From Thiomicrorhabdus immobilis (GTDB taxonomy: Bacteria > Pseudomonadota > Gammaproteobacteria > Thiomicrospirales > Thiomicrospiraceae), in assembly GCF_021654855.1 (NCBI RefSeq), contig NZ_AP024202.1, positions 124,001-188,000 on the forward strand: a stretch of DNA of 64,000 nucleotides, given 5' to 3'. The translations under genes were made by a program, and so were the position numbers. The first letter of the stretch is position 1, and the number at the start of each line of letters is the position of its first letter. Below, in pieces: positions 229 to 59,407 of this stretch. The notes below the pieces were generated by a model. That model had not been told where the DNA came from. It ran no database searches and was given only the letters and a program-made list of their open reading frames with translations.

Positions 229-1802
229 ACACGATGAGGACTTTGGGTTGTAGGTTATTGGCGTTGTTTTTGGTCACGTTTTTTGTCAGTCCGGCCATGG
301 CGTTTGATGCCGAAGTGACCAGGCCTGGTGATTTGGCTAAAGCTGAAGCAACACAAGAGAGTTCACCGATAACGGTGAGGATTCGACCGACCAATGTGCA
401 GCTTGGCGAGCCGGTTTCTCTCGTGATCGAGGGTGAGAAAATCGGTCAGTCGACCGCGTTATTGGATTGGAGCAATCTTAAGCAAGATTTTGTGATCAAT
501 GGGGTTGACCAGCACTCATACCTTTTAAGGTTGACGCTGTATCCGCTTAAAGAGGGTGATTTAGTGATTGCCGAGCAAAATGCCGGTAGGGTGCATATCC
601 CGAGAACGGTCATTCAGGTTCAAGCTAATCCACAAGTGAGTATTCAATGGCAAAAGCCTAAAGCCGAATTGTTCAGCACACAACAAGGGGTGTGGCAAGC
701 CAAGGTGGCGGTAGATAATCCGGCGTTCTTAGTGGAAATGCAACCGTCTTCGGAGTCGGAAAATAACGAAATCATTACACATCTGTTAAGTTCGTTAAGT
801 CATCCGCAACTCCATATGGTGAGTTATGAGATGCCGAGTGTTTCAAAGCGACAAACGGTACTTATCAACTCGCCTGTGGTTGAAGTGAAAAACACCAGTA
901 ATCGACGTTGGAAGTTTTTCGATTCTCCACAAACCGTGCAGATTAAACCCTTGCCGATTTTTTTACCGATGTCGGCTGCCGTCGGTGAGATCGACTGGAA
1001 GATAACACCTTTAAGGCGGTTTTACCAAGTGGGTGATTTGTATTATTGGCACTGGCAATTAACCGGCCAAGGAGTGACCGAGGATTATCTTAAATCCACG
1101 GCTTATCAGTTGATTGGTCAGTTAACGCACAATGATCAGCTTGCTTGGCTGGCAGAGTCGATGCAAGCCACACAAATGAGTGATGATAAAGGTATGTTGA
1201 CGCAGTTGGATGTGCAGATACCGTTTCGGATCAAACAACCAGGCCTGGTTGATTTTCCTGAGCTTGTTTTGCGCAGTTTTAATCCCGACCAGGCCAAGGT
1301 GTCGCAACAGACTTTTGCGGTGGCGAGCGTGGTGGTTGTACCAGGCTGGCTGGTATGGATTTTCAACTGGTTGATTTTGTTGCTTGGCATCGTTTCAGGC
1401 TATTTTATACTGCTACTTGTTAAGCAGTATTGGTTGAATATCCAGTTGCGTAGACAATTGAAAGAGGCGCAAACCAGTGAGCACGTTTTGCAGGCGATTT
1501 TGTCTTGGCAATCGAAACACCTATTGGGTTTAAGTATGACTGGGCAAACCAATCAGATTCAGTCATTGAGACAATTTGAACAGTGGTATCAACAACTTTA
1601 TGGCGATTCGCCGATATTATCGACGTTAATCGACGAGTTGAATGCCATGCTTTACTCAAAATCGAGTCAAGAGGCGTCGTTTTCAAGCATCAGAAATAAT
1701 GCCCAGGCCTGGGCATATTCACTTTCCATCATCAAAGGCTCACAACTGGCTTTCAAACGAGTCTTAAGAAAGGTCATGCAAGCCTTAAGGCTTAACCGAT
1801 AA
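222..1802 (+). CDS. batD: BatD-like protein (Bat aerotolerance operon)
   Basis: The 526-residue protein begins with a signal peptide (hydrophobic core LLALFLVTFFVSPAMA, cleavage likely after AMA near residue 27). A long extracytoplasmic beta-rich region follows, then one membrane helix at about residues 372-398 and a cytoplasmic tail of about 125 residues. This layout, with the early motif VRIRPTNVQLGEPVSL, is that of BatD family proteins, which are encoded with BatA/B/C and linked to oxygen or stress tolerance. ATG at 222 overlaps the preceding stop; a second ATG at 234 is an alternative start. The gene carries two exact ACCAGGCCTGGT palindromes (318 and 1238) and a GCCCAGGCCTGGGC variant (1701), encoding Thr-Arg-Pro-Gly, Pro-Gly-Leu-Val and Ala-Gln-Ala-Trp-Ala. 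The family call is solid; the biochemical role is not known. Confidence 0.8.
   Translation: MVNTMRTLGCRLLALFLVTFFVSPAMAFDAEVTRPGDLAKAEATQESSPITVRIRPTNVQLGEPVSLVIEGEKIGQSTALLDWSNLKQDFVINGVDQHSYLLRLTLYPLKEGDLVIAEQNAGRVHIPRTVIQVQANPQVSIQWQKPKAELFSTQQGVWQAKVAVDNPAFLVEMQPSSESENNEIITHLLSSLSHPQLHMVSYEMPSVSKRQTVLINSPVVEVKNTSNRRWKFFDSPQTVQIKPLPIFLPMSAAVGEIDWKITPLRRFYQVGDLYYWHWQLTGQGVTEDYLKSTAYQLIGQLTHNDQLAWLAESMQATQMSDDKGMLTQLDVQIPFRIKQPGLVDFPELVLRSFNPDQAKVSQQTFAVASVVVVPGWLVWIFNWLILLLGIVSGYFILLLVKQYWLNIQLRRQLKEAQTSEHVLQAILSWQSKHLLGLSMTGQTNQIQSLRQFEQWYQQLYGDSPILSTLIDELNAMLYSKSSQEASFSSIRNNAQAWAYSLSIIKGSQLAFKRVLRKVMQALRLNR
318..329. repeat. ACCAGGCCTGGT palindrome, exact, inside batD
   Basis: Exact 12-bp copy, read in batD as Thr-Arg-Pro-Gly. 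It lies just after the predicted signal peptide. Confidence 0.9.
1238..1249. repeat. ACCAGGCCTGGT palindrome, exact, inside batD
   Basis: Exact copy, read as Gln-Pro-Gly-Leu-Val in batD. Confidence 0.9.
1701..1714. repeat. Palindrome variant GCCCAGGCCTGGGC inside batD
   Basis: The 10-bp core CCAGGCCTGG is kept. Both outer bases are changed in a compensating way, so this is a perfect 14-bp palindrome. It is read as Ala-Gln-Ala-Trp-Ala. Confidence 0.75.
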
Positions 1803-1865
1803 AACGGCCGTTCAATCCAGAATATAGCCTGCTGTAGAACGGGTTTTGCGTTCCGGATAAGAATT

Positions 1866-1877
1866 ACCAGGCCCGGT
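1866..1877. repeat. Palindrome variant ACCAGGCCCGGT between convergent genes
   Basis: One mismatch (T to C at position 9). It lies between the ends of batD (+) and the small membrane protein gene (-). Confidence 0.7.
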
Positions 1878-1909
1878 GACTTTAAAAATCTTCGTGGCTG
1901 ATTTTGCTA

Positions 1910-2170
1910 TTATTTTGAACGGTAGGTTTCATCAAACGGTTTGATGATGCGTTGGTATTTTTTCCAAACCAACACTAGGGCATAGACTAAAGAACCCAGT
2001 AGAATCGCCAAACCAAGGTAAGCGATACCGGTTGAAAAGGCGTTCTCTCTGAACAAGAACGGAATCATTAAAATCACGCCTAAGATAAAGCCCATTGAGA
2101 TGGTTTTTAATGCTACTTTAATGATGCCCTGCATAAGTAAATGTTTGTGTTCTGGTGAACCTAATTCCAT
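1910..2170 (-). CDS. Small two-helix membrane protein, unknown function
   Basis: The 86-residue product has a short polar N-terminus (MELGSPEHKHLL), two strongly hydrophobic stretches at about residues 25-43 and 49-69, and a basic C-terminal tail (KKYQRIIKPFDETYRSK). This suggests a double-spanning inner-membrane protein. I do not recognise a family and see no catalytic motif. It is transcribed away from trxC's 3' end region and converges with batD, with a one-mismatch palindrome between the two stops. The ribosome-binding site before the ATG is weak. It is probably a real gene given its two clean helices and lack of overlap, but its function is unassigned. Confidence 0.55.
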   Translation of the reverse strand: MELGSPEHKHLLMQGIIKVALKTISMGFILGVILMIPFLFRENAFSTGIAYLGLAILLGSLVYALVLVWKKYQRIIKPFDETYRSK

Positions 2171-2247
2171 GCTGTTCTCGCTGTAATGTATAGAGGTTGT
2201 TTGATTATACGTTTGTTAGGTTTCTTAGATGGGAAAAATCGATGTAA

Positions 2248-2280
2248 CGGGCGATATGTTTGAATACATCGCCCGATTTT
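2248..2280 (-). terminator. Possible terminator after trxC
   Basis: Inverted repeat with 8-bp arms CGGGCGAT/ATCGCCCG (2248-2255 and 2268-2275), about 25 bp past the trxC stop. On the minus strand the T-run is interrupted (TTACATCGATTTTT), so efficiency is uncertain. Confidence 0.35.
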
Positions 2281-2300
2281 CTGAAGCTTGGCGGCTTGGT

Positions 2301-2729: not shown

Positions 2730-2795
2730 CACTTACTTCCCATTGTTTATGTCGGTAATTCTAAAAATATGGGGGTGTTTCAGGCGTTTTCAAGT

Positions 2796-3260: not shown

Positions 3261-3718
3261 AAAATACTCCATATACGGTCAAGGTATTTTAAATAAGTTT
3301 GCTTGAATTGTCGTGGTGGAGCCGTGTGCAAAATTGAGTTTGCGCAACTATCAAGCAAAAAAAAACGCGGTATTGGTCGATACCGCGCTTTTCAAGCTGA
3401 GGAGCATTAAAAACCCTTTTTTAAAACAGGGAGAGTTTTTGAGGCTTTTAAGACTAAGGAGTAACTCAAATAAATTGATTAGGTTTATTCAAGTTACTGA
3501 AGAGTTTAATACTCAGCTTAACTTTGAGCAATAGGTAAAAGTTGAGGAAGTATTGAAAGAGTATGGATAACTAATATGGGTATTAGAATATTTTATACAC
3601 CTATAGGCTAAAGCCTTATTTTATGTAAGGGTAATTGATTTAATTCATTATTATCAATAAGTTAAAACAGAATGAGTCAAGTATGGTTTTGAACACCATC
3701 CTGCTTTGCGTATGAAGG
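3261..3718. other. Gene-free stretch of 458 bp with an orphan minus-strand terminator
   Basis: I see no convincing coding frame. A 73-codon plus-strand frame (3313-3534) has no ribosome-binding site and unnatural composition. The right part (3540-3720) is AT-rich. The stretch holds a strong minus-strand intrinsic terminator at 3357-3387, over 330 bp beyond the nearest upstream minus-strand stop codon (3719). It could hold a long 3' UTR or a small RNA gene on the minus strand. Confidence 0.5.
3357..3387 (-). terminator. Strong intrinsic terminator, minus strand
   Basis: Perfect 8-bp arms CGCGGTAT (3366-3373) and ATACCGCG (3380-3387) with a 6-base loop. On the minus strand they are followed by nine T (A-run at 3357-3365). 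Confidence 0.75.
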
Positions 3719-5528: not shown

Positions 5529-5548
5529 TTTAACCAGGCCTGGTTAAA
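5529..5548. repeat. ACCAGGCCTGGT palindrome extended to 20 bp
   Basis: Exact core at 5533-5544. Flanks TTTA/TAAA extend it to a perfect 20-bp inverted repeat just past the stop of the minus-strand gene ending at 5555. There is no T-run, so it is a hairpin but not a classic terminator. Confidence 0.9.
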
Positions 5549-5554
5549 TCCAAG

Positions 5555-22193: not shown

Positions 22194-23561
22194 ATGTCTG
22201 ATGAGGTTTTACCTGTGTTGGAACAACAGCCCGATTTGAGTAAGGTCAAGCTGCTTTTAGAGGGGGATATCGCTTCTATTTATAAGGTTAAGCAAACGAC
22301 TGAAGCAGGTGTTGTGCGTAAACAGATTGTGCGGGTTATTGACGATATTAGCCACTATCAGGCTGTGAAGCGTGAAAAGGATTTGTTGCATTATTTAAAT
22401 CAGTTTCCAGAATTCATGCACTTTAATGAAATCCGCAAAGTCGGATTTCGTTACCTGCAGTTTTTTGATTTTGTGGGTAAACGTACCCTTTCCCAAACAA
22501 TTAAAAAGAAAGGTCCCTTACCGGTCAAGACCGCGAAACAATTGCTGGGTGATTTGCTTGCTATTCTAGAAAGAGTTCACCATGTTGGGTTTGTCCATGG
22601 TGATATTCGACCCGACAATATCATTATGGGAGACAAGCAGGCCTACCTCATTGATTGGTCGCATTCGATACCTTCATTAAGTTCATATGACTCGGAAACT
22701 ATGTGTGGTGATAAACGTTATTTTGCACCAGAGCGTTTAAATGGCCAGGTAGAAGAGGCTAGTGATATCTATTCATTGGGTTGCACTTTGTACTTTGCCT
22801 TAACCGGCAAACATATTTATCGCTTAGATAAGGTCAACGATGAGGCTAAACAGCTTTGGGCACATGCACACCACACGGTCCATAAAATGAATAAGTTACC
22901 TATTTTTTGGCGTTATCTTATTTTCTGGATGACCCAGAAAGACCCGGAAAAGCGACCAGGCCTGGCTGAATTGAATGCTTGGTTAGAAGATTTCACGGTT
23001 CCTGATTGGGTTCGTCAGATGAGTGTTAGGGTCGATAAATCCTATCCTGAAGACCCTATGACGGTTTTGGCAGATGAGCATTATATGTATCCAATCTTTA
23101 AAAAGGCGTTGGAGAGCGAACAATCCGGTGATTTGGATACCGCTTTCAACCTTTATGAAAACTGTGCGTTTAGAGATTATTCACGTGCAGAAAATAATTT
23201 GGGTCGGATGTATGAGCAGGGTAAACCGGTAAGGGAATCCTATGCGATGGCCGCCAATATGTACCAACAGGCTTTCGAGAAAGGCAACCCTTATGCCGCT
23301 TATAATTTGGCGCGCTTGTTTGAACAAGGTTTGGGTATGCCTACCAACTTGGAACATGCTTTTAAGTTGTATCGTTATGCCGCGATGCGGGGTAACTTGG
23401 AAGCGCAAAATGCATTGGCGATGATGTATTTAGAAGGAAGAGGTACCGCCAAGAATGTGACTCAAGCCCGTTCTTGGTTTGGTTTGGCCGCCCAATATGG
23501 CCATGCCGCCGCAAAGAAAAATATTCGCACCCTCTTAAAAGAGTCAAAAACAATCATTTGA
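22194..23561 (+). CDS. Ser/Thr protein kinase-like protein with C-terminal Sel1 repeats
   Basis: A 455-residue cytoplasmic protein. Residues 15-270 are a eukaryotic-type kinase domain. The catalytic loop HGDIRPDN (135-142) keeps the Asp and Asn, IDWS (153-156) replaces DFG but keeps the Asp, and APERL and SDIYSLG follow. The beta-3 lysine of the usual VAIK motif appears to be Arg47 (IVRVI), and the Gly-rich loop is poor (GDIASIYKV), so ATP binding may be atypical. Residues from about 300 form Sel1-like repeats (for example NNLGRMYEQGKPV, YNLARLFEQGLGM, NALAMMYLEGRGT), which mediate protein contacts. It lies 125 bp downstream of the adhesin and behind the adhesin terminator. A role in adhesin control is only a positional guess. 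A one-mismatch palindrome copy at 22955 is read as Arg-Pro-Gly-Leu-Ala. Confidence 0.85.
   Translation: MSDEVLPVLEQQPDLSKVKLLLEGDIASIYKVKQTTEAGVVRKQIVRVIDDISHYQAVKREKDLLHYLNQFPEFMHFNEIRKVGFRYLQFFDFVGKRTLSQTIKKKGPLPVKTAKQLLGDLLAILERVHHVGFVHGDIRPDNIIMGDKQAYLIDWSHSIPSLSSYDSETMCGDKRYFAPERLNGQVEEASDIYSLGCTLYFALTGKHIYRLDKVNDEAKQLWAHAHHTVHKMNKLPIFWRYLIFWMTQKDPEKRPGLAELNAWLEDFTVPDWVRQMSVRVDKSYPEDPMTVLADEHYMYPIFKKALESEQSGDLDTAFNLYENCAFRDYSRAENNLGRMYEQGKPVRESYAMAANMYQQAFEKGNPYAAYNLARLFEQGLGMPTNLEHAFKLYRYAAMRGNLEAQNALAMMYLEGRGTAKNVTQARSWFGLAAQYGHAAAKKNIRTLLKESKTII
22955..22966. repeat. Palindrome variant ACCAGGCCTGGC inside the kinase gene
   Basis: One mismatch at the last base. The 10-bp core is intact. 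Confidence 0.75.
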
Positions 23562-23659: not shown

Positions 23660-23671
23660 ACCAGGCCTGGT
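23660..23671. repeat. ACCAGGCCTGGT palindrome, exact, between convergent genes
   Basis: Exact copy between the ends of the kinase gene (+) and the 135-residue unknown (-). Flanks extend it only to TGACC/GGTTA and are not self-complementary. Confidence 0.9.
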
Positions 23672-26250: not shown

Positions 26251-26284
26251 ATCAAACCTACCAGGCCTGGTAGGTTTGATTTCT
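26251..26284. terminator. 30-bp perfect palindrome with ACCAGGCCTGGT core between convergent genes
   Basis: The exact core (26260-26271) is extended by 9 self-complementary bases on each side to a 30-bp perfect inverted repeat (26251-26280). It lies 17 bp past the diguanylate cyclase stop and 32 bp from the rsuA stop, and is a likely two-way transcription stop with modest T content. Confidence 0.65.
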
Positions 26285-27142: not shown

Positions 27143-27154
27143 ACCAGGCCTGGT
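27143..27154. repeat. ACCAGGCCTGGT palindrome, exact, 3' of argH
   Basis: Exact copy between the argH stop and its intrinsic terminator. Flanks are not self-complementary beyond the core. Confidence 0.9.
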
Positions 27155-27180: not shown

Positions 27181-28575
27181 TTAAGACGCCAAATAGGCCT
27201 TAGCTCTTGCAACCGCCGCTCGTACTTGATTTGGAGCGGTACCCCCTAAATGATTACGTGCGGCAACAGAACCCTCAAGGGTTAATACCTCAAAGACATC
27301 ATCGGTGATTTTGTCACAGAAACCTTGTAAGGTTTCCAATGACATTTCAGAAAGGTCCTCACCTGTCTTAATACCGTGGGCGACCGCCAACCCCACTACC
27401 TCGTGAGAGTCGCGGAACGCTAACCCTTTACCTACCAAGTAGTCAGCTAAATCAGTTGCGGTAGAGAAGCCGCGTTTAGCCGCTTCATAAGTGATTTCAC
27501 GTTTAACTTGAATGGCAGGAACCATATCGGCAAATGCTCTTAAAGATCCTTTAACAGTATCGACGGTGTCAAACAAAGGTTCCTTATCTTCTTGATTGTC
27601 TTTGTTGTAAGCCAATGGCTGCGATTTCATCAAGGTTAACAAACTCATCAGGTGACCATAAACACGCCCGGTTTTACCACGAACCAATTCTGGTACGTCA
27701 GGATTTTTCTTTTGCGGCATAATCGATGATCCCGTGCAGAAGCGGTCAGGCAGATCAATGAACTGAAATTGTGCCGATGACCACAGAACCAACTCTTCAG
27801 AAAAACGTGATAGATGCATCATTAAGGTTGCGGCAAAATGCGTGAATTCGATTGCAAAGTCACGGTCAGAAACCCCGTCCAATGAATTTTCGGTAATACG
27901 TTCAAAGCCCAATAATTCTGCGGTGTATTCACGCTCAATCGGGTAGGTTGTGCCCGCTAAAGCGGCTGAACCCAAAGGCATGGTATTGACACGCTTGCGG
28001 CAGTCTTGCAAACGTTCTACGTCACGTTTAATCATCTCGAACCAAGCCAGCATATGGTGACCAAACGTCACTGGTTGAGCGGTTTGTAAATGGGTGAAAC
28101 CAGGCATGATGGTATCGGCTTCACGTTCGGCCAATTCAACCAGGCCTGTTTGTAAACGCTTCAACTCAGGTAGAATCGCATCAATTTCATCACGAATATA
28201 CAGACGGATATCGGTTGCTACTTGGTCGTTACGTGAACGACCGGTATGCAGTTTCTTACCGGTAATGCCGATCAGGTTGGTTAAACGCGCTTCGATATTC
28301 ATATGAATATCTTCTTGTTTGATCGACCACTGAAACTCGCCCGCTTCAATTTCTTGTTGAACTTGCGTTAAGCCATTAATGATGTCATTGAGTTCAGCGT
28401 CATTCAAAATCCCCACTTTGGTGAGCATTTTGGCATGTGCGATAGAGCCTTGGATATCTTGTTTGTACATTCGGTTATCGAACTGAATCGAGGCGGTAAA
28501 GGCTTCTACAAAGGCATCGGTTGATTCACTGAAACGTGCGCTAGATAGTTTTTCTTGGTTGTGTTGATTGCTCAT
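27181..28575 (-). CDS. argH: Argininosuccinate lyase
   Basis: Last step of arginine synthesis: argininosuccinate is split to arginine and fumarate. The 464-residue length is standard. The fumarase/aspartase superfamily signature [12 protein letters not shown] contains the mobile catalytic Ser loop. [12 protein letters not shown] and the HTHLQ-like segment [15 protein letters not shown] hold the substrate-binding and catalytic His residues. It diverges from hemC with one gene between; argH near hemC is a known gammaproteobacterial neighbourhood, as in Pseudomonas. A near-copy of the repeated palindrome at 28139 is read as Thr-Gly-Leu-Val. Confidence 0.96.
28139..28150. repeat. Palindrome variant ACCAGGCCTGTT inside argH
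   Basis: One mismatch at position 11. Confidence 0.65.
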
Positions 28576-34063: not shown

Positions 34064-34094
34064 AAAAACCCACCAGGCCTGGTGGGTTTTTTTT
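34064..34094 (+). terminator. hemY terminator built on the ACCAGGCCTGGT palindrome
   Basis: The exact core (34072-34083) is extended by 8 self-complementary bases to a 28-bp perfect inverted repeat ending in a run of T. It is a complete intrinsic terminator for the hem operon. Confidence 0.9.
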
Positions 34095-38653: not shown

Positions 38654-38677
38654 AAAGCGACCAGGCCTGGTCGCTTT
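38654..38677. repeat. 24-bp perfect palindrome with ACCAGGCCTGGT core between purU and tmcA
   Basis: The exact core (38660-38671) is extended by AAAGCG/CGCTTT. It lies 27 bp past the purU stop and probably acts as a hairpin, with a classic terminator further on. Confidence 0.9.
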
Positions 38678-38743: not shown

Positions 38744-41005
38744 TCAATATCTATGTACGCCACTGGCTGGGCTTTTGTTTATCGCCTCCAGTTTGTGGGT
38801 TAGGCTGTTAAGGTTATTCCAATCGCTTATTATCTTTTTGAGCGCTTCCTCCACCCCTTTACGACCAGCTAGGTGGTGCTGGTGGGCGACCTCTTGCCAT
38901 GACATTTTTTTAAGAATCTTGTCACACCAGATTGTTTGTTCAACAATCGAGCTCTGACGGATAACCGGTGCAGACTGGATACTCCATTCCCAAATTCGGC
39001 TACTAATCGCCTCGTAAGGTCGTTTGTTGTTGAGGTAGTTCTGTAAGACCCTATCGAGTTTATGGTTGCGTTGCTTAAAGCGAAAGGTTTGAATGATTTG
39101 CCAAATCTGGATGGCGGATAAATTGGGTAGCGATTCCAATAAAAGATGCGGGAACTGTTGTTGAAAACGTTCCTGAATCAGCGCTAATGCTTGTCTAGCC
39201 ATGGCGCTAAGCGGTTTAGTGACCACAATGTTGTGGCTACCACTCGCCTTGTCTCGCTTAACCCCCACATGCAGTGGCCAAAAATTTTGCTTGAACCAAA
39301 ACGGTAGCAATTCATCACTCGCGCCAAAACTACTGCTGAGATAATCCACACGTGCGTTGGTGGCTAAGGTTTCAATCTCTTTAGTCAGCTGTAAACCAAT
39401 GCCATTGCGTTGATATTCGGGGTGCACGGCAATGCGCATAATACGCCAGGTGGAGAGCATCAAAAAGTTATCTTGAGCGTAGTTTTTGGTGAGCAGCTGC
39501 GGCACCAAATGTCCGTGTGCACGTTTGGTGCTCGGGCCTAGTTTGCCTTCTTCAACACACAGTAGGGCACCGATGATCTGGGTTTGACCGTTTTGTTTGA
39601 AGCTCGCCACCAAAATATGAATATTGGGTGCATTCAGCAGTTGTTGCAAATCATTGGGGCTGGTTTGGTAGTGGGCTTGTACCAGTAAGCCAAATAAAGA
39701 TTCCAATAGTCCGGATTGGCTAAGCAGTTGTTTGGCCGTTAGTTGTTGATATTTTATTTCTGGCAGTCGTCCTGGCTGGGGAGAGGTTTGGCTTTCAGAT
39801 AATCCGCTATTCAATAACAGAGCTTGGTTGATCGATTTTTCTAAAGGGTCGTTTTCTGCCCAGCGAATCGGTTGGTTGAGTTGGCTCGTTTTCCAGTCGG
39901 GGGTATGCTGTTCCAACTGTTTTTTGAAACGCAACTCAAACCCTCTGCCTGACCCTTCATAGCCATGCAGCGTGGTTGCGAATACCAAACGATGATGGCG
40001 CATCAACAACTCGGTTAATAGCGGCGTAGGGAGGTGTGCGGCCTCATCAACCAGCAGTAAATCCGCGGTAGTCGGGCTTAAGATGAGAGCATCCGGGGCA
40101 ATGAATTCAATGCATTTGTTTTGCTGGTTGTATTCAAATTCAACCAGGCCTGGTTTATTGGCGATAATGTTTAAGTTAAGGGTGGCATCTTGTTGCTGTA
40201 AGGTTTGTAAGGCGTACTGCGCATGTTTAAATACGGCCTGTGTTTGGTCTAAACGGCTAGCGGTGACCACAATGTGATTTTTACCATCCAATAGGCAGTC
40301 TATCGCCGCAATCCCTAAGGCGCTGCTTTTACCGCGGCCGCGGTCGGCAGTGATGACCAATGGGCGTTTGCGATGACCGAAAGCGACGGTATGTATGGCT
40401 TTAATCGCCTGCGTCTGGTCTTGAGTTGGCAGTTCAATATCGATAACGGCGCCGTTTATTGCCGGTGGTATCGCAGGGGTGTTTTTGTGTTGTTCCAACC
40501 AGACAACGTCATCGGTCTGCCAGCTTTGAATAAGGTGTTGGGTGAAACCATTGTGGGCTTGTTGAATGGTCAGCGGGGTATTTAAAAAACGGCTGTTTTC
40601 GGGGTTGACGATTGACGGCCAAATCTGTTTTTTAGGTGTAAGCAACACCAGTAAACCACCTGCAGTGATCATGCCTGCAAGTATGCCCAAAGTGTCGGCG
40701 CTTAAGCCTTGCTTAACGTCGATGATGGCACCGCTGATTTCTTGTCCTAAATGGTAACTAAGGCGTTTCGCTTCAAGCGGTTCAACGGCATAATCGAGTA
40801 GTGCCTGTGCGTTATGCAACAGCGTATTTTCTTCAGAACCGGATTCGCCGTTCAGTGAAGTTGAACCAATCCAAAAAATCTTTTCATCGGTTTTATACAG
40901 CCCTTTTAGTTGTTGCATTTGCCAATGAGTGTCGCCACTTAAAATCACCAGTTTCCGATGCTGTTTTTGCAAAAGTTGTTGACGAAGGTTAATCAGTTCA
41001 GACAT
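38744..41005 (-). CDS. tmcA: tRNA(Met) cytidine acetyltransferase
   Basis: Makes N4-acetylcytidine at the wobble base of elongator tRNA-Met using acetyl-CoA and ATP. The 753-residue protein has an N-terminal domain, then a RecA-like helicase module with Walker A ADRGRGKSSALG and Walker B LLLVDEAAHLP. A GNAT acetyltransferase module (RIMRIAVHPEYQRNGIGLQL) and a C-terminal tRNA-binding domain follow. Length is slightly above that of the E. coli enzyme. The GGDEF/EAL gene ends 38 bp upstream on the same strand, so co-transcription is possible. It carries an exact palindrome copy at 40143, read as Pro-Gly-Leu-Val. Confidence 0.94.
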   Translation of the reverse strand: MSELINLRQQLLQKQHRKLVILSGDTHWQMQQLKGLYKTDEKIFWIGSTSLNGESGSEENTLLHNAQALLDYAVEPLEAKRLSYHLGQEISGAIIDVKQGLSADTLGILAGMITAGGLLVLLTPKKQIWPSIVNPENSRFLNTPLTIQQAHNGFTQHLIQSWQTDDVVWLEQHKNTPAIPPAINGAVIDIELPTQDQTQAIKAIHTVAFGHRKRPLVITADRGRGKSSALGIAAIDCLLDGKNHIVVTASRLDQTQAVFKHAQYALQTLQQQDATLNLNIIANKPGLVEFEYNQQNKCIEFIAPDALILSPTTADLLLVDEAAHLPTPLLTELLMRHHRLVFATTLHGYEGSGRGFELRFKKQLEQHTPDWKTSQLNQPIRWAENDPLEKSINQALLLNSGLSESQTSPQPGRLPEIKYQQLTAKQLLSQSGLLESLFGLLVQAHYQTSPNDLQQLLNAPNIHILVASFKQNGQTQIIGALLCVEEGKLGPSTKRAHGHLVPQLLTKNYAQDNFLMLSTWRIMRIAVHPEYQRNGIGLQLTKEIETLATNARVDYLSSSFGASDELLPFWFKQNFWPLHVGVKRDKASGSHNIVVTKPLSAMARQALALIQERFQQQFPHLLLESLPNLSAIQIWQIIQTFRFKQRNHKLDRVLQNYLNNKRPYEAISSRIWEWSIQSAPVIRQSSIVEQTIWCDKILKKMSWQEVAHQHHLAGRKGVEEALKKIISDWNNLNSLTHKLEAINKSPASGVHRY
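40143..40154. repeat. ACCAGGCCTGGT palindrome, exact, inside tmcA
   Basis: Exact copy, read on the minus strand as Lys-Pro-Gly-Leu-Val. Confidence 0.9.
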
Positions 41006-43072: not shown

Positions 43073-43996
43073 TTATTCAATCGGTAGACTAAAATCATTA
43101 CCCCATTCATTCCATGAAGCGTCATAGTTGGCAACATTAAAGCCAAGTTCCCTAAGGGTGAGATAGTTGGTTGCCGAGATATGCCCAAGCGAGCAGTATA
43201 GAATAATTTTGTGGTCTTTGGAAAGCCCGCCATAAAGCGATTCTAGTTCTTGCTTGGACTTGAAGCGGGTCATGCCTTGCTGTTGGGTTAAATTCTCTTG
43301 AGCGGGAATATTGATGGCGGTAATGATGTGTCCAAAACGTTTGGCTGTCGAGACCTTGCCTTCATAAGCCTCTTGGGAGCGGGTATCGATGACTTGCTGG
43401 TTGGGGTTTTTAGTTGCAATCAAGGTGCTTAATTTGGTGGCTAAACGCTCATGGTTTATGACCGGTATGTAATGACTGCTTTTGGCTTCAGGCAAGATTG
43501 AGGTGGTCGCCAGGTTGAGTTTTTTCCAATGATTGAGCCCCATATCGAGAACCTTAACGTCGTGTAGCCCATAAACCTCCAAAGTCCAAAAAACCCGGGC
43601 GGCATCGGTTAAGTTGCCTTGGTCGTAGATGACTAATGACGTATCGACGGTAATGCCTATGGCTTGTAAATAGGTTTGCATTGCCTGCGGTTGAACGATG
43701 CGGCCATCGAGGGATTTATCGTGATAACTTTGCGTCTCCGGAAAATTAAAGGCTCCAGGAATATGTTCTTTGGCATATTCCTCCTTTGAACGCACATCTA
43801 ACACCACCAGGCCCGGTTGGTTTAAGGTTTCTTTAAGTTGCTTCGCGCTGATCCTTAAGGTGTTATCGGCAAAAGCTGGAGGGCTAACCGCTGATAGCAT
43901 CAATAAAATGATGAAAGCCGGAATCAACAGTAAATTGAGCTCGACCCTAAATGGTCGCCTATCACGATTTGTTTTGCTAAAAGACCATGATTTCAT
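43073..43996 (-). CDS. Periplasmic double-rhodanese sulfurtransferase
   Basis: A 307-residue exported protein. A hydrophobic N-terminal segment (LLLIPAFIILLMLSAVSPPAFA, ending near residue 44) acts as signal peptide or anchor, followed by two rhodanese domains. The first (about 50-165) has VVLDVRSKEEYAKEHIPGAFN. The second (about 185-305) has the active Cys in YCSLGHISATNY (near residue 268). This is the SseA/thiosulfate sulfurtransferase layout, moving sulfane sulfur from thiosulfate or mercaptopyruvate to a thiophilic acceptor. Periplasmic placement would suit sulfur-compound oxidation. It is co-transcribed with the GGDEF/EAL gene. A one-mismatch palindrome at 43806 is read as Pro-Gly-Leu-Val. 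Confidence 0.85.
   Translation of the reverse strand: MKSWSFSKTNRDRRPFRVELNLLLIPAFIILLMLSAVSPPAFADNTLRISAKQLKETLNQPGLVVLDVRSKEEYAKEHIPGAFNFPETQSYHDKSLDGRIVQPQAMQTYLQAIGITVDTSLVIYDQGNLTDAARVFWTLEVYGLHDVKVLDMGLNHWKKLNLATTSILPEAKSSHYIPVINHERLATKLSTLIATKNPNQQVIDTRSQEAYEGKVSTAKRFGHIITAINIPAQENLTQQQGMTRFKSKQELESLYGGLSKDHKIILYCSLGHISATNYLTLRELGFNVANYDASWNEWGNDFSLPIE
43806..43817. repeat. Palindrome variant ACCAGGCCCGGT inside the rhodanese gene
   Basis: One mismatch, the same substitution as the copy at 1866. Confidence 0.7.
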
Positions 43997-44668: not shown

Positions 44669-46711
44669 ATGTCATCAAACAAACTCACTTTAGCACAAGT
44701 TAGCTGGACAAATGAAGCCGTTCCGAAGTCACAGCAGTTTGACGACTTCTATTTTTCAACTGATGGTGGTATGGCTGAGGTTGAACATACCTTTATCCTG
44801 CCCAACAATCTAGCGGAACGTTTTGCTTCATTAGGTGAACAAGCAACCTTTAGAATTGCCGAAACCGGCTTTGGTTCGGGGTTGAATTTTTTGATGGCAA
44901 CCGAGTTGTGGCTGACGACAGCATCAGAAACGGCTCAGTTACACTTTATTTCATTTGAAAAATACCCCTTGCATTTGGATGATTTGATTAAGGCGCATCA
45001 AGCTTTACCAGGCCTGGTCGATGTGGCTAAAGCTTTGCAAGAGAACTATCCGTTTTTATTGCCGGGCTGGCATGATGTTTGGCTGTTTGAAAAACGGGTG
45101 CGTTTAACCTTATGGTTTGGCGATGTGTTAAAAGGATTGCCGGAGTGTGATGGTAGCGACAGTGCCAAGGTGGATGCTTGGTTTTTAGATGGCTTTGCTC
45201 CGGTGAAAAACCCGGATATGTGGCAACCCGCTCTCTATCAACAAATGGCGCGTCTGAGTCATCTGAACAGCACTTTTGCGACGTTTACCGCCGCCGGCGA
45301 TGTAAGGCGAGGACTGGAGAAAACCGGTTTTGAAGTCAATAAGTCCTCTGGATTTGGCAAGAAACGCGAGATCTGCTCCGGAAAATTGGTTCATCAGCGT
45401 CCTTATAGCCTAAAAAACCCATGGTTTAGCCGGCCACAAGATGTGTATAGTCAGCCAGGCAAGGCCATTGTGATTGGCGCTGGATTGGCTGGAGGAGCGG
45501 TGGTTAACCAGCTGGCACAAGCCGGTTGGTCGGTAGAGTTTCTGGAGGAGCAGGATGAAATCGCTACCCAAGCCTCGGGTAATTTGGCGGGGGCGGTGCA
45601 TCCGTTGATCACCGCCGATTGGAACCTGCGAAGTCAGTGGTACTTGCAAGGTTTTGAAGCCACCTTGAGAGCGGTTCTGCCGTGGTTGGCGGAATCGCAA
45701 ACCGACAGTGCGGGTCTGTTGGGCGACCTGAGCGGCTTAGTACAATTGGCGGTCACCGAAACCAGCGCTAAACGGGTTGCTGAGGCGATAGAAAGGGTGG
45801 GGTTGCCGGAACAATTCGCTCAATTGGTCACCCAGTCGCAAGCGAGTGAAATGATTGGTGCTCAAGCCAGTGCCTCGGGGGTGTTTTTCCCTCAAGGCGG
45901 TTGGCTCTATCCCAAAGCGGTGATTGAGCGTTGTTTACAATACGACAACGTCACCCTGTTTACGGGGCAAAAGGTCTTAGACATTCAGCAACAGGAAAAT
46001 CAGCAGCAGAGTCGTGCCGTTTGGCAGGTGATTACGCAACAGCAAACTTTTTATGCGGATATCGTGGTGGTGGCCACCGGCAGCCTGGATCAAAATCTCA
46101 ACCACAAACTCGGACTCCCCATTCGCCCAGTAAAAGGCCAGGTGAGCCATATTTCAGCAGAGCAACAAACCGTGCCGTTAAAAATGGCGGTGACCCACGA
46201 AGGGTATTCTGCTCCCTGCGGGCACGCAAGAGCGGTGAGTGGAGCCACGTTTGAAGCACCGGATATGAGTGAATTCTTGTCTCTAACAAGCCATCAAGCC
46301 AATTTGGAGATTACGCGAAATGCCTTGCCTGACTGGTTGGATGTCCAGGCTGAATCATTGACTGGACGAGTCGCTTTCAGGCCAACTACGCCAGATCATC
46401 TGCCAATTATCGGAGCGGTTGCTGATAATGATTGGATGCAAAAAGCCTACCTTTCGCAATCGCACACCCATGCGGTTTATCGTTATGAAAAACAACGTTA
46501 TCAACCTGGCCTGTATGTTTCCAATGGACATGGCCCAAGGGGGTTGATGTCGGTGTTCTTGGCTGCGGAAACCTTGCTGGCGGATATCATGGGGCGAGCC
46601 TTGCCACAACCCTTATCACTCTATCATGCAAGCCACCCGGCTCGTTTTGCCATTCGTCGTTGGCGCAGTGGCGAGCAAAAATCGGATAAAGATGACGTTG
46701 GTGGTCTTTAG
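44669..46711 (+). CDS. mnmC: Bifunctional tRNA mnm5s2U34 methyltransferase/FAD oxidoreductase MnmC
   Basis: Completes the mnm5 group at wobble uridine of several tRNAs. The 680-residue protein has an N-terminal SAM-dependent MnmD methyltransferase (AETGFGSGLNFLMA, VDAWFLDGFAPVKNPDMW). Its C-terminal FAD-dependent half (from about residue 265, VIGAGLAGGAVVNQL and SGNLAGAVHPL) removes the carboxymethyl group. The length is typical of the fused enzyme. An exact palindrome copy at 45007 is read as Leu-Pro-Gly-Leu-Val. The ribosome-binding site is weak. It is followed by a 221-bp gap. Confidence 0.95.
   Translation: MSSNKLTLAQVSWTNEAVPKSQQFDDFYFSTDGGMAEVEHTFILPNNLAERFASLGEQATFRIAETGFGSGLNFLMATELWLTTASETAQLHFISFEKYPLHLDDLIKAHQALPGLVDVAKALQENYPFLLPGWHDVWLFEKRVRLTLWFGDVLKGLPECDGSDSAKVDAWFLDGFAPVKNPDMWQPALYQQMARLSHLNSTFATFTAAGDVRRGLEKTGFEVNKSSGFGKKREICSGKLVHQRPYSLKNPWFSRPQDVYSQPGKAIVIGAGLAGGAVVNQLAQAGWSVEFLEEQDEIATQASGNLAGAVHPLITADWNLRSQWYLQGFEATLRAVLPWLAESQTDSAGLLGDLSGLVQLAVTETSAKRVAEAIERVGLPEQFAQLVTQSQASEMIGAQASASGVFFPQGGWLYPKAVIERCLQYDNVTLFTGQKVLDIQQQENQQQSRAVWQVITQQQTFYADIVVVATGSLDQNLNHKLGLPIRPVKGQVSHISAEQQTVPLKMAVTHEGYSAPCGHARAVSGATFEAPDMSEFLSLTSHQANLEITRNALPDWLDVQAESLTGRVAFRPTTPDHLPIIGAVADNDWMQKAYLSQSHTHAVYRYEKQRYQPGLYVSNGHGPRGLMSVFLAAETLLADIMGRALPQPLSLYHASHPARFAIRRWRSGEQKSDKDDVGGL
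45007..45018. repeat. ACCAGGCCTGGT palindrome, exact, inside mnmC
   Basis: Exact copy, read as Pro-Gly-Leu-Val in the methyltransferase half. Confidence 0.9.
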
Positions 46712-48078: not shown

Positions 48079-48094
48079 TCACCAGGCCTGGTGA
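48079..48094. repeat. ACCAGGCCTGGT palindrome, exact, between convergent genes
   Basis: The exact core (48081-48092) is extended to a 16-bp perfect palindrome. It lies 25 bp past the small membrane protein gene (+) and 31 bp past the thiD stop (-). Confidence 0.9.
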
Positions 48095-51797: not shown

Positions 51798-52967
51798 ATG
51801 CATTATCAAACAATCATATTGGGCGCAGGGGCTTCGGGCTTGATGTGTGCCGCCACCTCAGGCTACCAAGGAAAATCCGTTTTGGTGATTGACCATGCGC
51901 CTAAAGCCGCCGCTAAAATTCGTATCTCGGGGGGCGGAAAATGCAATTTTACCAATCTGGATGTCTCTCCCAGTCACTACCTCTGCCAAAACCCGCATTT
52001 TGTTAAGTCGGCTTTGTCGCGTTATCCTTCGGCGGCTTTTATTGAGTTGGTTGAACGTCACGGTCTGGAATATGAACAACGTGAGCTGGGCAAGCTGTTT
52101 TGTAAAGAGCGCGCTTCGGACTTGATTCAAATCTTACGCACCGAATGCGATTGGGCCGGCGTTGAGGTAATGACACATTGCGCCATAGACCAGGTTGCAT
52201 TCACCAATCAACAGTATCTGATTAGTACCTCGCATGGAGAGTTCACAGCCGATAAATTAGTGGTGGCTACCGGCGCCTTGTCTTTTCCAAAACTTAAAGC
52301 CAGCGGAATCGGTTATGAAATCGCCAAGCAGTTTGGTTTAAATGTCATCCCAACCTCACCAGGCCTGGTGCCTTTGGTTTTTGAGGGTAAATGGCAAGAG
52401 CGTATTGCCGCCTTAAGTGGCTTGGCTTTGGATGTGAATGTTTCATGTGGAACACATGCATTCAAAGAAGCCATTTTGTTTACCCATACTGGTTTGAGCG
52501 GACCAGGGATTTTGCAAATTTCAAACTATTGGCAACTGGGCAAAACCATTGAGATTGATTTGTTACCAGGCCTGGTGGTTGTGGAGGAGCTTAAAGTCTT
52601 GAAGAAATCGGGACAACCTGTTCAAAAATGGCTCAATCAATATTGGCCAAAACGGTTTACCCAGGCCTGGTTAGAGTGGTTTCCGATTGAAAACCAGTTG
52701 TCCAATGTACCGGATGAGATGTTAATCGATTACGCACACCAACTCACCCATTGGACGCTTTATCCCAGTGATACCGCTGGGTACGATAAGGCAGAGGTTA
52801 CTTTGGGTGGTGTGGATACCGATGAAGTCTCCTCCAAAACCTTTGAAGCCAAAAAACAACCCGGTCTGTATTTTATCGGCGAAGTGTTGGATGTGACGGG
52901 GCATCTGGGCGGCTACAACTTCCAGTGGGCTTGGGCGTCCGGTGTGGCTTGCGGGTTGGCTTTGTAA
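51798..52967 (+). CDS. BaiN/YhiN-like NAD(P)/FAD-dependent oxidoreductase
   Basis: A 389-residue flavoprotein of the HI0933 family. The FAD-binding motif ILGAGASGLMCAA lies at residues 7-19, followed by RISGGGKCNFTN, a family signature near residue 42, and a C-terminal GYNFQWAWASGVACGLAL closing the FAD site. The substrate is unknown for most members. The gene carries two exact palindromes (52358, 52565) and one single-mismatch copy (52660) within about 310 bp. They are read as Pro-Gly-Leu-Val, Pro-Gly-Leu-Val and Gln-Ala-Trp-Leu. Confidence 0.86.
   Translation: MHYQTIILGAGASGLMCAATSGYQGKSVLVIDHAPKAAAKIRISGGGKCNFTNLDVSPSHYLCQNPHFVKSALSRYPSAAFIELVERHGLEYEQRELGKLFCKERASDLIQILRTECDWAGVEVMTHCAIDQVAFTNQQYLISTSHGEFTADKLVVATGALSFPKLKASGIGYEIAKQFGLNVIPTSPGLVPLVFEGKWQERIAALSGLALDVNVSCGTHAFKEAILFTHTGLSGPGILQISNYWQLGKTIEIDLLPGLVVVEELKVLKKSGQPVQKWLNQYWPKRFTQAWLEWFPIENQLSNVPDEMLIDYAHQLTHWTLYPSDTAGYDKAEVTLGGVDTDEVSSKTFEAKKQPGLYFIGEVLDVTGHLGGYNFQWAWASGVACGLAL
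52358..52369. repeat. ACCAGGCCTGGT palindrome, exact, inside BaiN-like gene
   Basis: Exact copy, read as Pro-Gly-Leu-Val. Confidence 0.9.
52565..52576. repeat. ACCAGGCCTGGT palindrome, exact, inside BaiN-like gene
   Basis: Exact copy, read as Pro-Gly-Leu-Val, 207 bp from the previous one. Confidence 0.9.
52660..52671. repeat. Palindrome variant CCCAGGCCTGGT inside BaiN-like gene
   Basis: One mismatch at the first base, read as Thr-Gln-Ala-Trp-Leu. Confidence 0.75.
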
Positions 52968-57676: not shown

Positions 57677-57964
57677 ACCATTCCTTTCTGTTCTAAGTGA
57701 TTGGGATTCCGCTATTCAAAACATGGTCTTAAGTAGTTGGTGAATCACTGAAAGTTATACGCCTTAAGTATAATTGAGTTCATTGGAATTTAAAGCATTT
57801 AAGTCTGTCAAAAATATGAAAATATTAAACGGCATCAATTTATTGTCCATGCTTGGCGTGAATTAAAAACCGATCCGATTTTTCGCATTCATTGTGCATA
57901 CTAAAAATTGACTGTAGATAGGGTTATAATAGAAAAATTGTTACTAACGAAGACATTTACACGG

Positions 57965-58414
57965 ATGAATTTATTGAATTTAGATGAAGCGCAACGTGCG
58001 CCTTTTGCACGTATTGCCGCAGGTTTAATCCGCGATAAGGGTATCGATCCTCGCGAGATATTTTTGAATGTATTGGAAAGCCAAGAAGCCCCGGAGATGA
58101 ATTATTGGATGACCATGGTGTTGGTGCAGGAGCATTTCGTTTCCGCGCAACAAGAAGTGGCCAAAGATGCGGCTGGCGAAGTGGTCAAACCTTTGCAAGC
58201 AGCTTGTTTGTTGCAAAACGTGGGTATGGTTGCGGCGTTACTGGAGCTGGGCGGTTTTAAAGGCAGTGTGACTGATAGGGAATTTCAATTAAGCGCACGC
58301 ATTGCGTCTTCACATGAAGACCAGGCCATTTTAGGGTTGTTAATGAAGTATGCTCAAGAAAAAGACGTTTTAGAACCATTTATGCGCACTTTACAGGGCT
58401 CGACACTACAATAA
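57965..58414 (+). CDS. Hypothetical cytoplasmic protein
   Basis: A 149-residue soluble protein starting MNLLNLDEAQRAPFARI at ATG 57965; an upstream TTG at 57908 is in frame but unlikely. It is mostly helical (GLIRDKGIDPREIFLNVLESQ, LQAACLLQNVGMVAALLELGGF), without Cys motifs or membrane helices apart from one Cys. The helical pattern suggests an ankyrin- or HEAT-like fold, but I do not recognise the family. A palindrome at 58425 lies 10 bp past its stop. Confidence 0.6.
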   Translation: MNLLNLDEAQRAPFARIAAGLIRDKGIDPREIFLNVLESQEAPEMNYWMTMVLVQEHFVSAQQEVAKDAAGEVVKPLQAACLLQNVGMVAALLELGGFKGSVTDREFQLSARIASSHEDQAILGLLMKYAQEKDVLEPFMRTLQGSTLQ

Positions 58415-58424
58415 ATCCAATGTC

Positions 58425-58436
58425 ACCAGGCCTGGT
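58425..58436. repeat. ACCAGGCCTGGT palindrome, exact, 3' of the hypothetical gene
   Basis: Exact copy 10 bp after the stop at 58414. Flanks are not self-complementary beyond the core. Confidence 0.9.
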
Positions 58437-58464
58437 AGATATTCGATTAGTGTAAAAATGATTA

Positions 58465-58501
58465 ATAGGTAAAAACTATCAACTTGGTTGAAACAATCAA
58501 T
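58465..58501 (+). promoter_or_regulatory. OxyR-like operator upstream of the peroxiredoxin-glutaredoxin gene
   Basis: The left half, ATAG (58465-58468) N7 CTAT (58476-58479), fits the OxyR half-site ATAGntnnnanCTAT at every defined base. After a 7-bp spacer comes a weaker second half, GTTG N7 CAAT (58487-58501), in the correct phase. It lies about 120 bp before the ATG of a peroxide-removing gene, which fits OxyR activation. Confidence 0.5.
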
Positions 58502-58620
58502 TTCCTTTATTAAAGGTCTTTCAGTAAACTAGGCATCAAGTTAACGAAACAACTCGTTAAAAACTAAATTTTAATCAACTAACGAACAGCGTAAAAAGTT
58601 TGTTCCAGTAGGAGTAGAAA

Positions 58621-59358
58621 ATGGCATTAGTAAACAAAGAAGGTCAAAACGTTCCAGCAGTTACATTCCGTACTCGTCAGAATAATGAGTGGGTAAACGT
58701 GACTTCAGACGATATTTTTAAAGGTAAGACGGTTATCGTATTTTCACTACCAGGTGCATTTACGCCAACCTGTTCATCAAGCCATTTACCACGTTTTAAC
58801 GAACTAGCTCCAGTATTTACTGCAAACGGTGTTGATGAGATTGTGTGTATGTCGGTCAACGATACGTTTGTAATGAACGCTTGGGCAGAAGACCAAGAGT
58901 CTGACAACGTGACTTTAATCCCAGACGGTAACGGTGAGTTCTCTGAAGGAATGGGTATGTTGGTTGATAAAACCGATCTAGGTTTTGGTATGCGTTCATG
59001 GCGTTATTCAATGTTGGTGAAAGATGGTGTTATCGACAAAATGTTTATTGAGCCGGAAGTAGAAGGTGACCCGTTTGAAGTTTCTGACGCGGATACCATG
59101 CTTAACTACATCAACCCAGAAGCTAAGCCACCACGTGTTGCGACAATCTTCACCAAGCCTGGTTGCCCATTCTGCATTAAAGCGAAAGCGATGTTGAAAG
59201 ATAACGGCATTAGCTACGAAGAGATTACGATTTCTAACCACGGGCCAAGCTCTAAAACGCTACGTGCGGTTGCTCAGGCAAGTACGGTTCCGCAAGTATT
59301 CATCGAAGGTGAGCACATTGGTGGATCAGATGATCTAGAAGCGTTTTTAAGTAAATAA
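58621..59358 (+). CDS. Hybrid peroxiredoxin-glutaredoxin
   Basis: Glutathione-dependent peroxidase made of two fused domains in 245 residues. Residues 1-165 are a Prx5-type peroxiredoxin with the peroxidatic Cys51 in [10 protein letters not shown]. Residues 172-245 are a glutaredoxin with the CPFC motif (Cys182, Cys185) and the cis-Pro segment [15 protein letters not shown]. Hybrid proteins such as the Haemophilus enzyme use GSH through their own glutaredoxin domain. TAGGAG lies before the ATG. An OxyR-like operator is upstream and the glutathione reductase gene is 150 bp downstream, so the two make a full GSH cycle. Confidence 0.95.
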
Positions 59359-59377
59359 GCATTGTTGTAAAGACAAT

Positions 59378-59407
59378 TTAAAACCTACCAGGCCTGGTAG
59401 GTTTTAA
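59378..59407. terminator. 30-bp perfect palindrome with ACCAGGCCTGGT core, 3' of prx-grx
   Basis: The exact core (59387-59398) is extended by 9 self-complementary bases per side. It lies 19 bp after the stop and carries four T on the 3' side, and is a probable terminator hairpin. Confidence 0.7.

What the first reader, a model, noticed from the sequence alone, without database searches (positions are those of the whole stretch)
318..59398. A 12-bp perfect palindrome, ACCAGGCCTGGT, is dispersed through the whole window
I count 15 exact copies (318, 1238, 5533, 23660, 26260, 27143, 34072, 38660, 40143, 45007, 48081, 52358, 52565, 58425, 59387). There are five single-mismatch copies (1866, 22955, 28139, 43806, 52660) and one 10-bp-core copy (1703). 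Chance alone would give about 0.004 exact copies in 64 kb. The core is two abutting CCWGG (Dcm-type) sites, CCAGG then CCTGG, around the StuI site AGGCCT. Known classes of iterated motif include HIP1 of cyanobacteria, DNA uptake sequences of Neisseria and Haemophilus, and nucleoid-organising sites; this motif is none that I recognise. Candidate roles are a DNA-uptake or self-recognition tag, a methylation/VSR-driven hotspot, or a binding site for an unknown chromosome-organising protein.
Basis: partly seen in the sequence, partly recalled or inferred. Interest (0 to 1): 0.85.

Follow-up and report, generated by a model that had tools for sequence, protein, structure and literature searches.

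The report
Palindromic self-recognition tag in Thiomicrorhabdus DNA
A short mirror-like DNA word is scattered hundreds of times through this sulfur bacterium's chromosome, several relatives carry altered versions of it, and it looks like a tag that lets the cells recognise their own kind's DNA when they take DNA up from the surroundings.

Summary
Confirmed: 15 exact copies of ACCAGGCCTGGT in the window (six more with one mismatch) and 446 in the 2.54-Mb genome; reversed control 0. The genus is Thiomicrorhabdus: 20 kb of a congener's plasmid is identical to a T. aquaedulcis record. The 12-mer is the centre of a longer symmetric motif, AAAnYnACCAGGCCTGGTnRnTTT, also inside genes. In the family, 32 of 62 genomes are rich in the core CAGGCCTG, and 6 more carry altered words, some non-palindromic: AACAGGCCGGGT, ACCGGCCGGT, CCAGGYTGGGG. 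Outside the family none of 271 genomes has over 5 exact copies. Copies favour gene-end spacers, can form hairpins, arose in genes mostly by substitution, and are about 6-fold scarcer on one plasmid. This genome has no match to the two DNA-methyltransferase families tested. Best reading: a DNA-uptake (self-recognition) sequence with dialects, in a third bacterial family. Uptake is not shown, the receptor is unknown, and 24 of 62 relatives show no such word.

The parts
318..329 (.). exact 12-mer, inside ORF 222-1802
1238..1249 (.). exact 12-mer, inside ORF 222-1802
1703..1712 (.). 10-bp core CCAGGCCTGG
1866..1877 (+). one-mismatch copy
5533..5544 (.). exact 12-mer, outside ORFs
22955..22966 (+). 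one-mismatch copy, in protein-kinase-domain ORF 22194-23561
23660..23671 (.). exact 12-mer between convergent genes
26260..26271 (.). exact 12-mer between convergent genes; long perfect hairpin
27143..27154 (.). exact 12-mer in the spacer after argH (argininosuccinate lyase family gene)
28139..28150 (+). one-mismatch copy in argH
34072..34083 (.). exact 12-mer between convergent genes; hairpin followed by a T run
38660..38671 (.). exact 12-mer between convergent genes; hairpin
40143..40154 (.). exact 12-mer inside a TmcA-like gene
43806..43817 (+). one-mismatch copy in a rhodanese-domain gene
45007..45018 (.). exact 12-mer inside ORF 44669-46711 (Methyltransf_30 + DAO domains; MnmC-like by recall)
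48081..48092 (.). exact 12-mer between convergent genes
52358..52369 (.). exact 12-mer in HI0933-like gene; core at the same site in G018 and G035
52565..52576 (.). exact 12-mer in HI0933-like gene; core at the same site in G018, gapped and different in G035
52660..52671 (+). one-mismatch copy in HI0933-like gene; core at the same site in G018 and G035
58425..58436 (.). exact 12-mer just after the end of ORF 57908-58414
59387..59398 (.). exact 12-mer just after ORF 58621-59358; hairpin

Best explanation
The motif is an uptake (self-recognition) sequence of naturally transformable bacteria, working like the DUS of Neisseriaceae and the USS of Pasteurellaceae. SHOWN: hundreds of near-identical copies; an inner core with A/T-rich flanks; altered words in relatives; gene-end and in-gene placement; hairpin or paired arrangements at gene ends; origin in genes mostly by substitution; scarcity on one plasmid; a ComEC gene and many pilin-like genes. 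INFERRED: a surface pilin prefers DNA carrying the word; DNA from the same or close species is therefore taken up and recombined more often; copies accumulate by this biased uptake, settling where they do least harm (after genes, where the palindrome doubles as a terminator hairpin); the receptor's specificity drifts, giving dialects that limit exchange between lineages.
For: (1) 446 copies in G000, 0 reversed. (2) The exact 12-mer has 0-5 copies in each of 271 genomes of other families (dialect words were not searched there). (3) Dialects: core CAGGCCTG 236-1173 copies in 32 of 62 family genomes, at most 74 in the other 30; AACAGGCCGGGT 482 in G020 and 275 in G004, 0-3 in the other 30 congeners; ACCGGCCGGT 1025 in G023, 0-15 in the other 31 (reversed control 0-12); TSTRCCAGGYTGGGG 162/214/271 in G063/G064/G068, 0-1 in the other 59. 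Left halves align as AAAnYnnnCAGG in the small samples read (G023 departs, CCGG). On a one-gene tree G063+G064 pair at 100/99. (4) Placement in 464 kb: 49 of 87 exact copies in the 11.6% outside ORFs; 16 in 9.6 kb of convergent and 3 in 14.2 kb of divergent spacers. (5) Four of four window sites tested fold into hairpins, z -3.1 to -6.7 (sites chosen by me); G020's non-palindromic word has 8 close pairs, all inverted, 0.9 expected in any orientation. (6) 30 of 33 ortholog comparisons, covering 23 of 82 genic core sites, show no gap. (7) G018 plasmid: 6 cores in the 80 kb read against about 36 at chromosomal density. (8) ComEC in 28 of 32 genomes of the genus; 14 pilin-like matches in G000 at E <= 0.05.
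Against: No uptake or transformation experiment for this genus turned up: two searches gave 0 papers and two broader listings showed none (listings only). No receptor found: the pilin genes looked at also occur in motif-poor congeners. ComEC is about as common in motif-poor (12 of 14) as in motif-rich (16 of 18) congeners, so it does not discriminate. PilQ, PilT, DprA were not tested. Both known uptake words are non-palindromic, whereas the commonest words here are palindromic and most copies in G000 carry the flank signal on both sides, which also suits a dimeric DNA-binding protein. 24 of 62 family genomes, including 14 of 32 in the genus, have no dialect that I found. The plasmid test rests on one plasmid.
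Confidence: 0.66

Rival explanations
1. Binding site of a dimeric chromosome-organising or regulatory protein (works like matS, SlmA or Noc sites, named from recall).
For: Perfect palindrome whose A/T and Y/R flank signals are on both sides of the same copy (32 of 38 genic copies have Y/R on both sides, 19 of 38 the A/T block on both); near-random spacing over the first 535 kb (CV 0.92); palindromic altered words in G008 and G017.
Against: Non-palindromic words in G020, G004, G063, G064, G068; preference for convergent and avoidance of divergent spacers; absence in many close relatives; whole-genome counts of 162-1173 are far above those recalled for such systems. Ori-ter distribution over the whole genome was not tested.
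Confidence: 0.18
2. Methylation- or repair-driven iterated palindrome, as proposed for HIP1 of cyanobacteria (Elhai 2015, PMC4390886; abstract, section 7 and part 1 of section 18 read).
For: Palindrome, GC-rich, replaced by other palindromes in relatives, as with alternative HIPs.
Against: G000 and G023 have no match to PF00145 or PF01555; no association of PF00145 with the motif in the genus (7 of 18 vs 8 of 14); motif is about 24 bp with A/T blocks; some relatives' words are non-palindromic. Other MTase families (for example D12 or type I adenine enzymes) were not tested.
Confidence: 0.06
3. Purely a transcription terminator or mRNA 3'-end element.
For: Gene-end placement and hairpins.
Against: 38 of 87 copies lie inside ORFs and keep the A/T and Y/R flank signals; terminators do not need one fixed core.
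Confidence: 0.05
4. Mobile or REP-like repeat that inserted at many places.
For: Many near-identical copies with palindromic structure; 3 of 33 ortholog comparisons have a gap near the site.
Against: 30 of 33 comparisons show existing codons changed without insertion; flank profiles show no longer repeated unit beyond the A/T blocks.
Confidence: 0.02

Closest known systems
DNA uptake sequence (DUS) of Neisseriaceae, receptor ComP
   Same: Hundreds or more copies, dialects with a conserved inner core, inverted pairs at terminators, genic and intergenic copies (PMC3630211, passages seen).
   Different: Different word, different class of bacteria; the commonest words here are perfect palindromes, so one copy alone can make a hairpin; A/T blocks flank the core; uptake untested and no ComP identified.
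Uptake signal sequence (USS) of Pasteurellaceae, proposed receptor ComN/PpdA
   Same: Gammaproteobacteria; core plus A/T-rich segments; dialects (PMC12616744 introduction).
   Different: USS core is non-palindromic with its A/T segments downstream only; here half of the genic copies have A/T blocks on both sides. No comNOPQ search done.
HIP1 and alternative HIPs of cyanobacteria
   Same: Iterated palindromes spread through a genome with lineage-specific replacement (PMC4390886).
   Different: HIPs go with a cognate methyltransferase; neither of the two families tested is present in G000. Some words here are not palindromes.

Membership tests
DUS/USS uptake sequences | Hundreds to thousands of copies, far above chance | tested here: met
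   446 vs 0 control; O/E about 2000 in 464 kb
DUS/USS uptake sequences | Dialects with conserved inner core between related species | tested here: met
   G023 departs (CCGG in place of CAGG); 24 of 62 genomes have no known word
DUS/USS uptake sequences | Dialects adhere to phylogeny | tested here: inconclusive
   One-gene tree of 30 genomes, 8 of 27 inner branches well supported; G063+G064 pair, but exact-12-mer congeners fall in two places and motif-poor ones lie among them
DUS/USS uptake sequences | Inverted pairs or hairpins at gene ends, terminator-like | tested here: met
   Structure and placement only; termination not measured
DUS/USS uptake sequences | Scarce in foreign DNA | tested here: inconclusive
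   One plasmid only: 6 cores in 80 of 96.8 kb vs about 36 expected
DUS/USS uptake sequences | Natural-transformation machinery present | tested here: inconclusive
   ComEC and pilin-like genes found; PilQ, PilT, DprA not tested; ComEC also in motif-poor congeners
DUS/USS uptake sequences | Specific surface receptor (ComP or ComN-like) | tested here: inconclusive
   Pilin genes of 8 genomes compared, none seen to separate motif-rich from motif-poor genomes
DUS/USS uptake sequences | Motif raises DNA uptake | not testable with these tools
   needs an experiment
HIP1-type palindromes | Cognate DNA methyltransferase in the genome | tested here: not met
   PF00145 and PF01555: 0 matches in G000 at E <= 0.001; other families not tested
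Dcm/Vsr hotspot | CCWGG cytosine-5 methyltransferase | tested here: not met
   PF00145: 0 matches in G000; Vsr itself not searched
Chromosome-organising sites (matS, SlmA, Noc) | Regional (ori or ter) distribution and cognate protein | not tested
   Only the first 100 positions, to 535 kb, were examined for spacing
REP/BIME repeats | Copies are insertions | tested here: not met
   30 of 33 genic comparisons without gap; 3 with a gap

The most novel reading that the evidence does not exclude
A third, apparently independent lineage of sequence-specific DNA uptake, in environmental bacteria of the Thiomicrorhabdus family, whose word is in most lineages a palindrome (read symmetrically, so orientation-free and able to act as its own terminator hairpin) and has split into at least six dialects, some of which are no longer palindromic; the receptor is a fast-evolving pilin and the dialects act as barriers to gene exchange.
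Probability: 0.53. Interest if true: 0.88.

Novelty: new variant of a known kind. Interest (0 to 1): 0.8.

Why it matters
[quoted passage not shown] A third family with a different, mostly palindromic word and several dialects would give an independent replicate for open questions: how uptake words arise, why they change, what reads them, and whether they isolate species. The family contains close relatives with rich, altered and apparently absent motifs, so receptor candidates can be sought by comparison. It could also give a practical handle: adding the word to DNA might make these bacteria easier to transform.

Tried and rejected
Naming the organism by a genome-contig scan with ArgH failed: the 80 loci kept are distant, and near records may be left out. 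A plasmid of congener G018 gave the genus. The k-mer scan of 79-100 kb each from G003, G013, G014, G019, G024, G026, G031 found no dispersed word of the same strength; some words in G013 and G024 were confined to a few 2-kb bins. G011 and G016 had only 20 kb each and G060 40 kb. G068 showed nothing in 40 kb but has 271 copies genome-wide, so a negative on 40 kb is weak. G002 has 466 cores but 6 exact 12-mers: its dialect was not sampled. The 35-kb motif gap at 410-445 kb of G000 is a ribosomal-protein / RNA-polymerase region (genes recognised from recall), not an island, and a gap that long has P about 0.10 by chance among 100 positions. Receptor hunting among pilins gave no discriminating gene. 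The flank profiles of palindromic words were symmetrised, so their symmetry is built in; one search tested each copy's two sides apart and found both-sided signals. Strand bias of G020's word could not be read from the cut listing. No structure was predicted. Chi-like, restriction-avoidance and codon-usage explanations were considered and dropped without a dedicated test: the first is polar, the second predicts scarcity, the third cannot explain copies outside genes.
Full report
Observation. The 15 exact copies are at the stated places; six one-mismatch copies exist, one more than listed (59152), and the 10-bp core at 1703 is real. One hundred dinucleotide shuffles gave at most 2 matches at this tolerance against 21 observed. 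The genome holding the window (G000, one contig, 2,539,444 b) has 446 copies and none of the reversed word. In a 464-kb sample (window plus 20 stretches) there are 87 exact copies against 0.04 expected, and 140 copies of the inner CAGGCCTG against 5.3 expected. Of 36 one-mismatch copies in the sample, 31 differ at one of positions 1, 2, 11, 12; the 19 changes at positions 2 and 11 include no transition.

Organism. A contig of congener G018 (96,830 b) matches Thiomicrorhabdus aquaedulcis plasmid NZ_AP018723.1, of the same length, at 100% over the 20 kb compared, so the genus is Thiomicrorhabdus as grouped in this collection. The order held is one family of 62 genomes in 7 genera. That g5 and g6 are Thiomicrospira and Hydrogenovibrio is my guess, not tested.

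The real motif is longer. The profile of the 38 genic copies alone shows A at -4 to -6 (53-67%) and a pyrimidine at -2 (92%), with the mirror image downstream. That profile was symmetrised, so I checked each copy's two sides apart: 32 of 38 genic copies have Y at -2 and R at +2 on both sides, and 19 of 38 have the A/T block (at least 2 of 3) on both sides, 13 on one, 6 on neither; a random triplet has it in 22%. Outside genes the numbers are 46 of 49 and 30 of 49. So the motif is AAAnYnACCAGGCCTGGTnRnTTT, with both-sided signals in most copies, and the blocks are not merely a terminator by-product. This is longer than methyltransferase sites that I recall, and the two Dcm-type sites look incidental.

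Dialects. The 12-mer is patchy in the genus: of 31 other genomes, 7 have 333-718 copies, 7 have 6-197 and 17 have 0-2. Altered words explain 10 of these 24 lower counts: the seven with 6-197 all have 236-1173 copies of the core CAGGCCTG, and three of the 17 have another word; the other 14 have none that I know. Samples of 40 kb show AGCAGGCCTGCT in G008, AACAGGCCTG half-words in G005 and G017 (palindromic ACAGGCCTGT in G017), and mixed outer pairs in G025 and in three g5 genomes. CAGGCCTG is at 236-1173 copies in 32 of 62 family genomes (15 of 32 in g1, 9 of 9 in g5, 7 of 11 in g6, 1 of 1 in g3) and at most 74 in the other 30. Six of those 30 have other words: AACAGGCCGGGT in G020 (242+240) and G004 (137+138), 0-3 in the other 30 congeners; ACCGGCCGGT in G023 (1025), 0-15 in the other 31, where the reversed control is 0-12; TSTRCCAGGYTGGGG in G063, G064, G068 (162, 214, 271), 0-1 in the other 59. 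Aligned by their left halves the consensus words, from 7-87 copies each, read AAAnYnACCAGG, AAAAnTnAGCAGG, AAAnYnAACAGG, AAAACTCAACAGG, AAAATCTGCCAGG: a common AAAnYnnnCAGG with a right half that is either its mirror or something else. The remaining 24 genomes show no word I know; seven congeners were sampled at 79-100 kb without finding one, most of the others were not sampled, and G068 shows that a 40-kb negative is weak. Outside the family the exact 12-mer occurs 0-5 times in each of 271 genomes (counting out the three family members in that draw of 274); other words were not searched there.

Tree. An ArgH tree of 30 genomes (midpoint root, for drawing only) separates the g5 genomes and G060 from the other 26 at 98/100; G063 and G064 pair at 100/99; the exact-12-mer congeners G000, G009, G015, G021, G030, G018 group at 80/91, but G007 and G027, with the same word, pair elsewhere (100/99). 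Motif-poor congeners lie among motif-rich ones, which suggests losses. Only 8 of 27 inner branches are well supported.

Placement. With a simple ORF caller (88.4% coding), 38 of 87 exact copies are in ORFs and 49 outside or overlapping an ORF end: 0.09 against 0.9 per kb. By spacer type: convergent 16 copies in 9.6 kb, codirectional 25 in 26.4 kb, divergent 3 in 14.2 kb, 5 at stretch ends. Intergenic copies extend to longer perfect palindromes (15 of 49 by 3 or more bases each side; genic 3 of 38; random places 1.7%), and 23 of 49 have a run of four T within 18 b on one strand or the other (genic 11 of 38). Four window sites that I chose fold with z-scores -3.1 to -6.7. Since G020's word is not a palindrome, such hairpins there need two copies: among 85 sites listed to 483 kb, 8 neighbouring pairs are within 60 b, all inverted in the same order, against 0.9 expected in any orientation (positions, counted). 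Inverted pairs at terminators are described for the Neisseriaceae and Pasteurellaceae words.

Origin of copies. I could compare 23 of 82 genic core sites with orthologs at 45% identity or more in the stretches on hand, 33 comparisons: 30 have no gap near the site, so codons were changed in place, e.g. an RPG stretch using the uncommon codon AGG (341 of 5,320 Arg codons). Three have gaps and give no clear insertion; five comparisons keep the core unchanged, all in the HI0933-like gene of the window shared with G018 and G035. This speaks against a mobile repeat.

Foreign DNA. The G018 plasmid has 4 exact 12-mers and 6 cores in the 80 kb read of 96.8 kb; at chromosomal density about 23 and 36 are expected. 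A large second contig of G015 (443 kb; 60 kb read) has 19 cores where about 18 are expected, as a control. One plasmid is a small sample.

Methylation. PF00145 has no match in G000 or in motif-rich G023, G027, G021, G010, G025, G017, G005, G020, G004; over cut-off it occurs in 7 of 18 motif-rich and 8 of 14 motif-poor congeners, and G015 has a match below cut-off (sorted). PF01555 has no match in G000 and G023 but occurs in 9 of 32 genomes of the genus. I did not test D12, type I or other adenine enzymes, nor Vsr.

Machinery. ComEC is in 28 of 32 genomes of the genus: 16 of 18 motif-rich (the two misses are drafts in 330 and 520 contigs) and 12 of 14 motif-poor. G000 has 14 pilin-like matches at E <= 0.05, seven other genomes 3-11. 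A lone 176-aa pilin at 553 kb and a pilin cluster near 2,027-2,032 kb have counterparts in several genomes, including motif-poor G003. No receptor is claimed.

Mechanism and verdict. The anatomy fits an uptake sequence in most respects that can be read from sequence; the palindrome, the missing receptor and the motif-poor relatives are the open points. Steps not shown: preferential binding, preferential uptake, a receptor, and drive by recombination. The main rival is a dimeric chromosome-organising protein (0.18).

Literature. PMC12616744 (abstract, introduction and passages seen) names only Neisseriaceae and Pasteurellaceae as families known to discriminate by uptake words. PMC3630211 was seen in passages only. 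Searches 'DNA uptake sequence'+'Thiomicrospira' and 'Thiomicrorhabdus'+'natural transformation' gave 0 papers. In two broader searches I saw only listings, 10 of 13 and 10 of 374 papers; none of the 10 rows holds Thiomicrorhabdus. In one search no listed paper (15 of 848) holds ACCAGGCCTGGT; since papers with both terms should rank first, I take it that none held does. The library has no preprints and lacks most subscription journals, so prior description elsewhere is possible. PMC6501319 (Hydrogenovibrio genomes; passages only) has no occurrence of competence or type IV pil.

Noticed in passing
window 6221-22069: A 5,282-aa ORF holding 14 copies of a word exactly 402 bases apart (7001 to 12227), i.e. 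a 134-residue repeat unit; GC up to 0.545 there. Probably a giant repetitive surface protein (not searched). It holds no exact copy of the motif.
   Followed up: partly
L290, L296-L302: In the 8 genomes looked at, pilin-like genes sit beside a conserved gene run (miaB, phoH, ybeY by recall); the pilins match best at the N-terminus and diverge after it. Candidate place for a recognition pilin, not discriminating by presence.
   Followed up: partly
L293 3002-4350: Two ORFs looking like an IS3-type transposase pair (named from recall) lie a little upstream of comEC in G000.
   Followed up: no
L303-L304 (G000 405-445 kb): The longest motif-free gap among the first 100 copies is a ribosomal-protein / RNA-polymerase region (recognised from recall), as if highly expressed genes do not tolerate the word; a gap that long has P about 0.10 by chance.
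   Followed up: partly
L100 17732-18317 (G033): A local cluster of the repeated word AGGCTAAAGCCT: 8 of its 9 copies in 40 kb of G033 lie within 600 bases.
   Followed up: partly
L059-L060 (G003), L066-L067 (G019): Words containing TCACGTGAAA recur near the start of the contigs and look like ParB parS sites (recalled motif).
   Followed up: no
G002: 466 copies of CAGGCCTG but only 6 of the exact 12-mer: a further dialect not sampled.
   Followed up: no
L288 (G031): argH of G031 reads in two overlapping frames (315 and 172 aa), a frameshift or assembly error; not mended.
   Followed up: no
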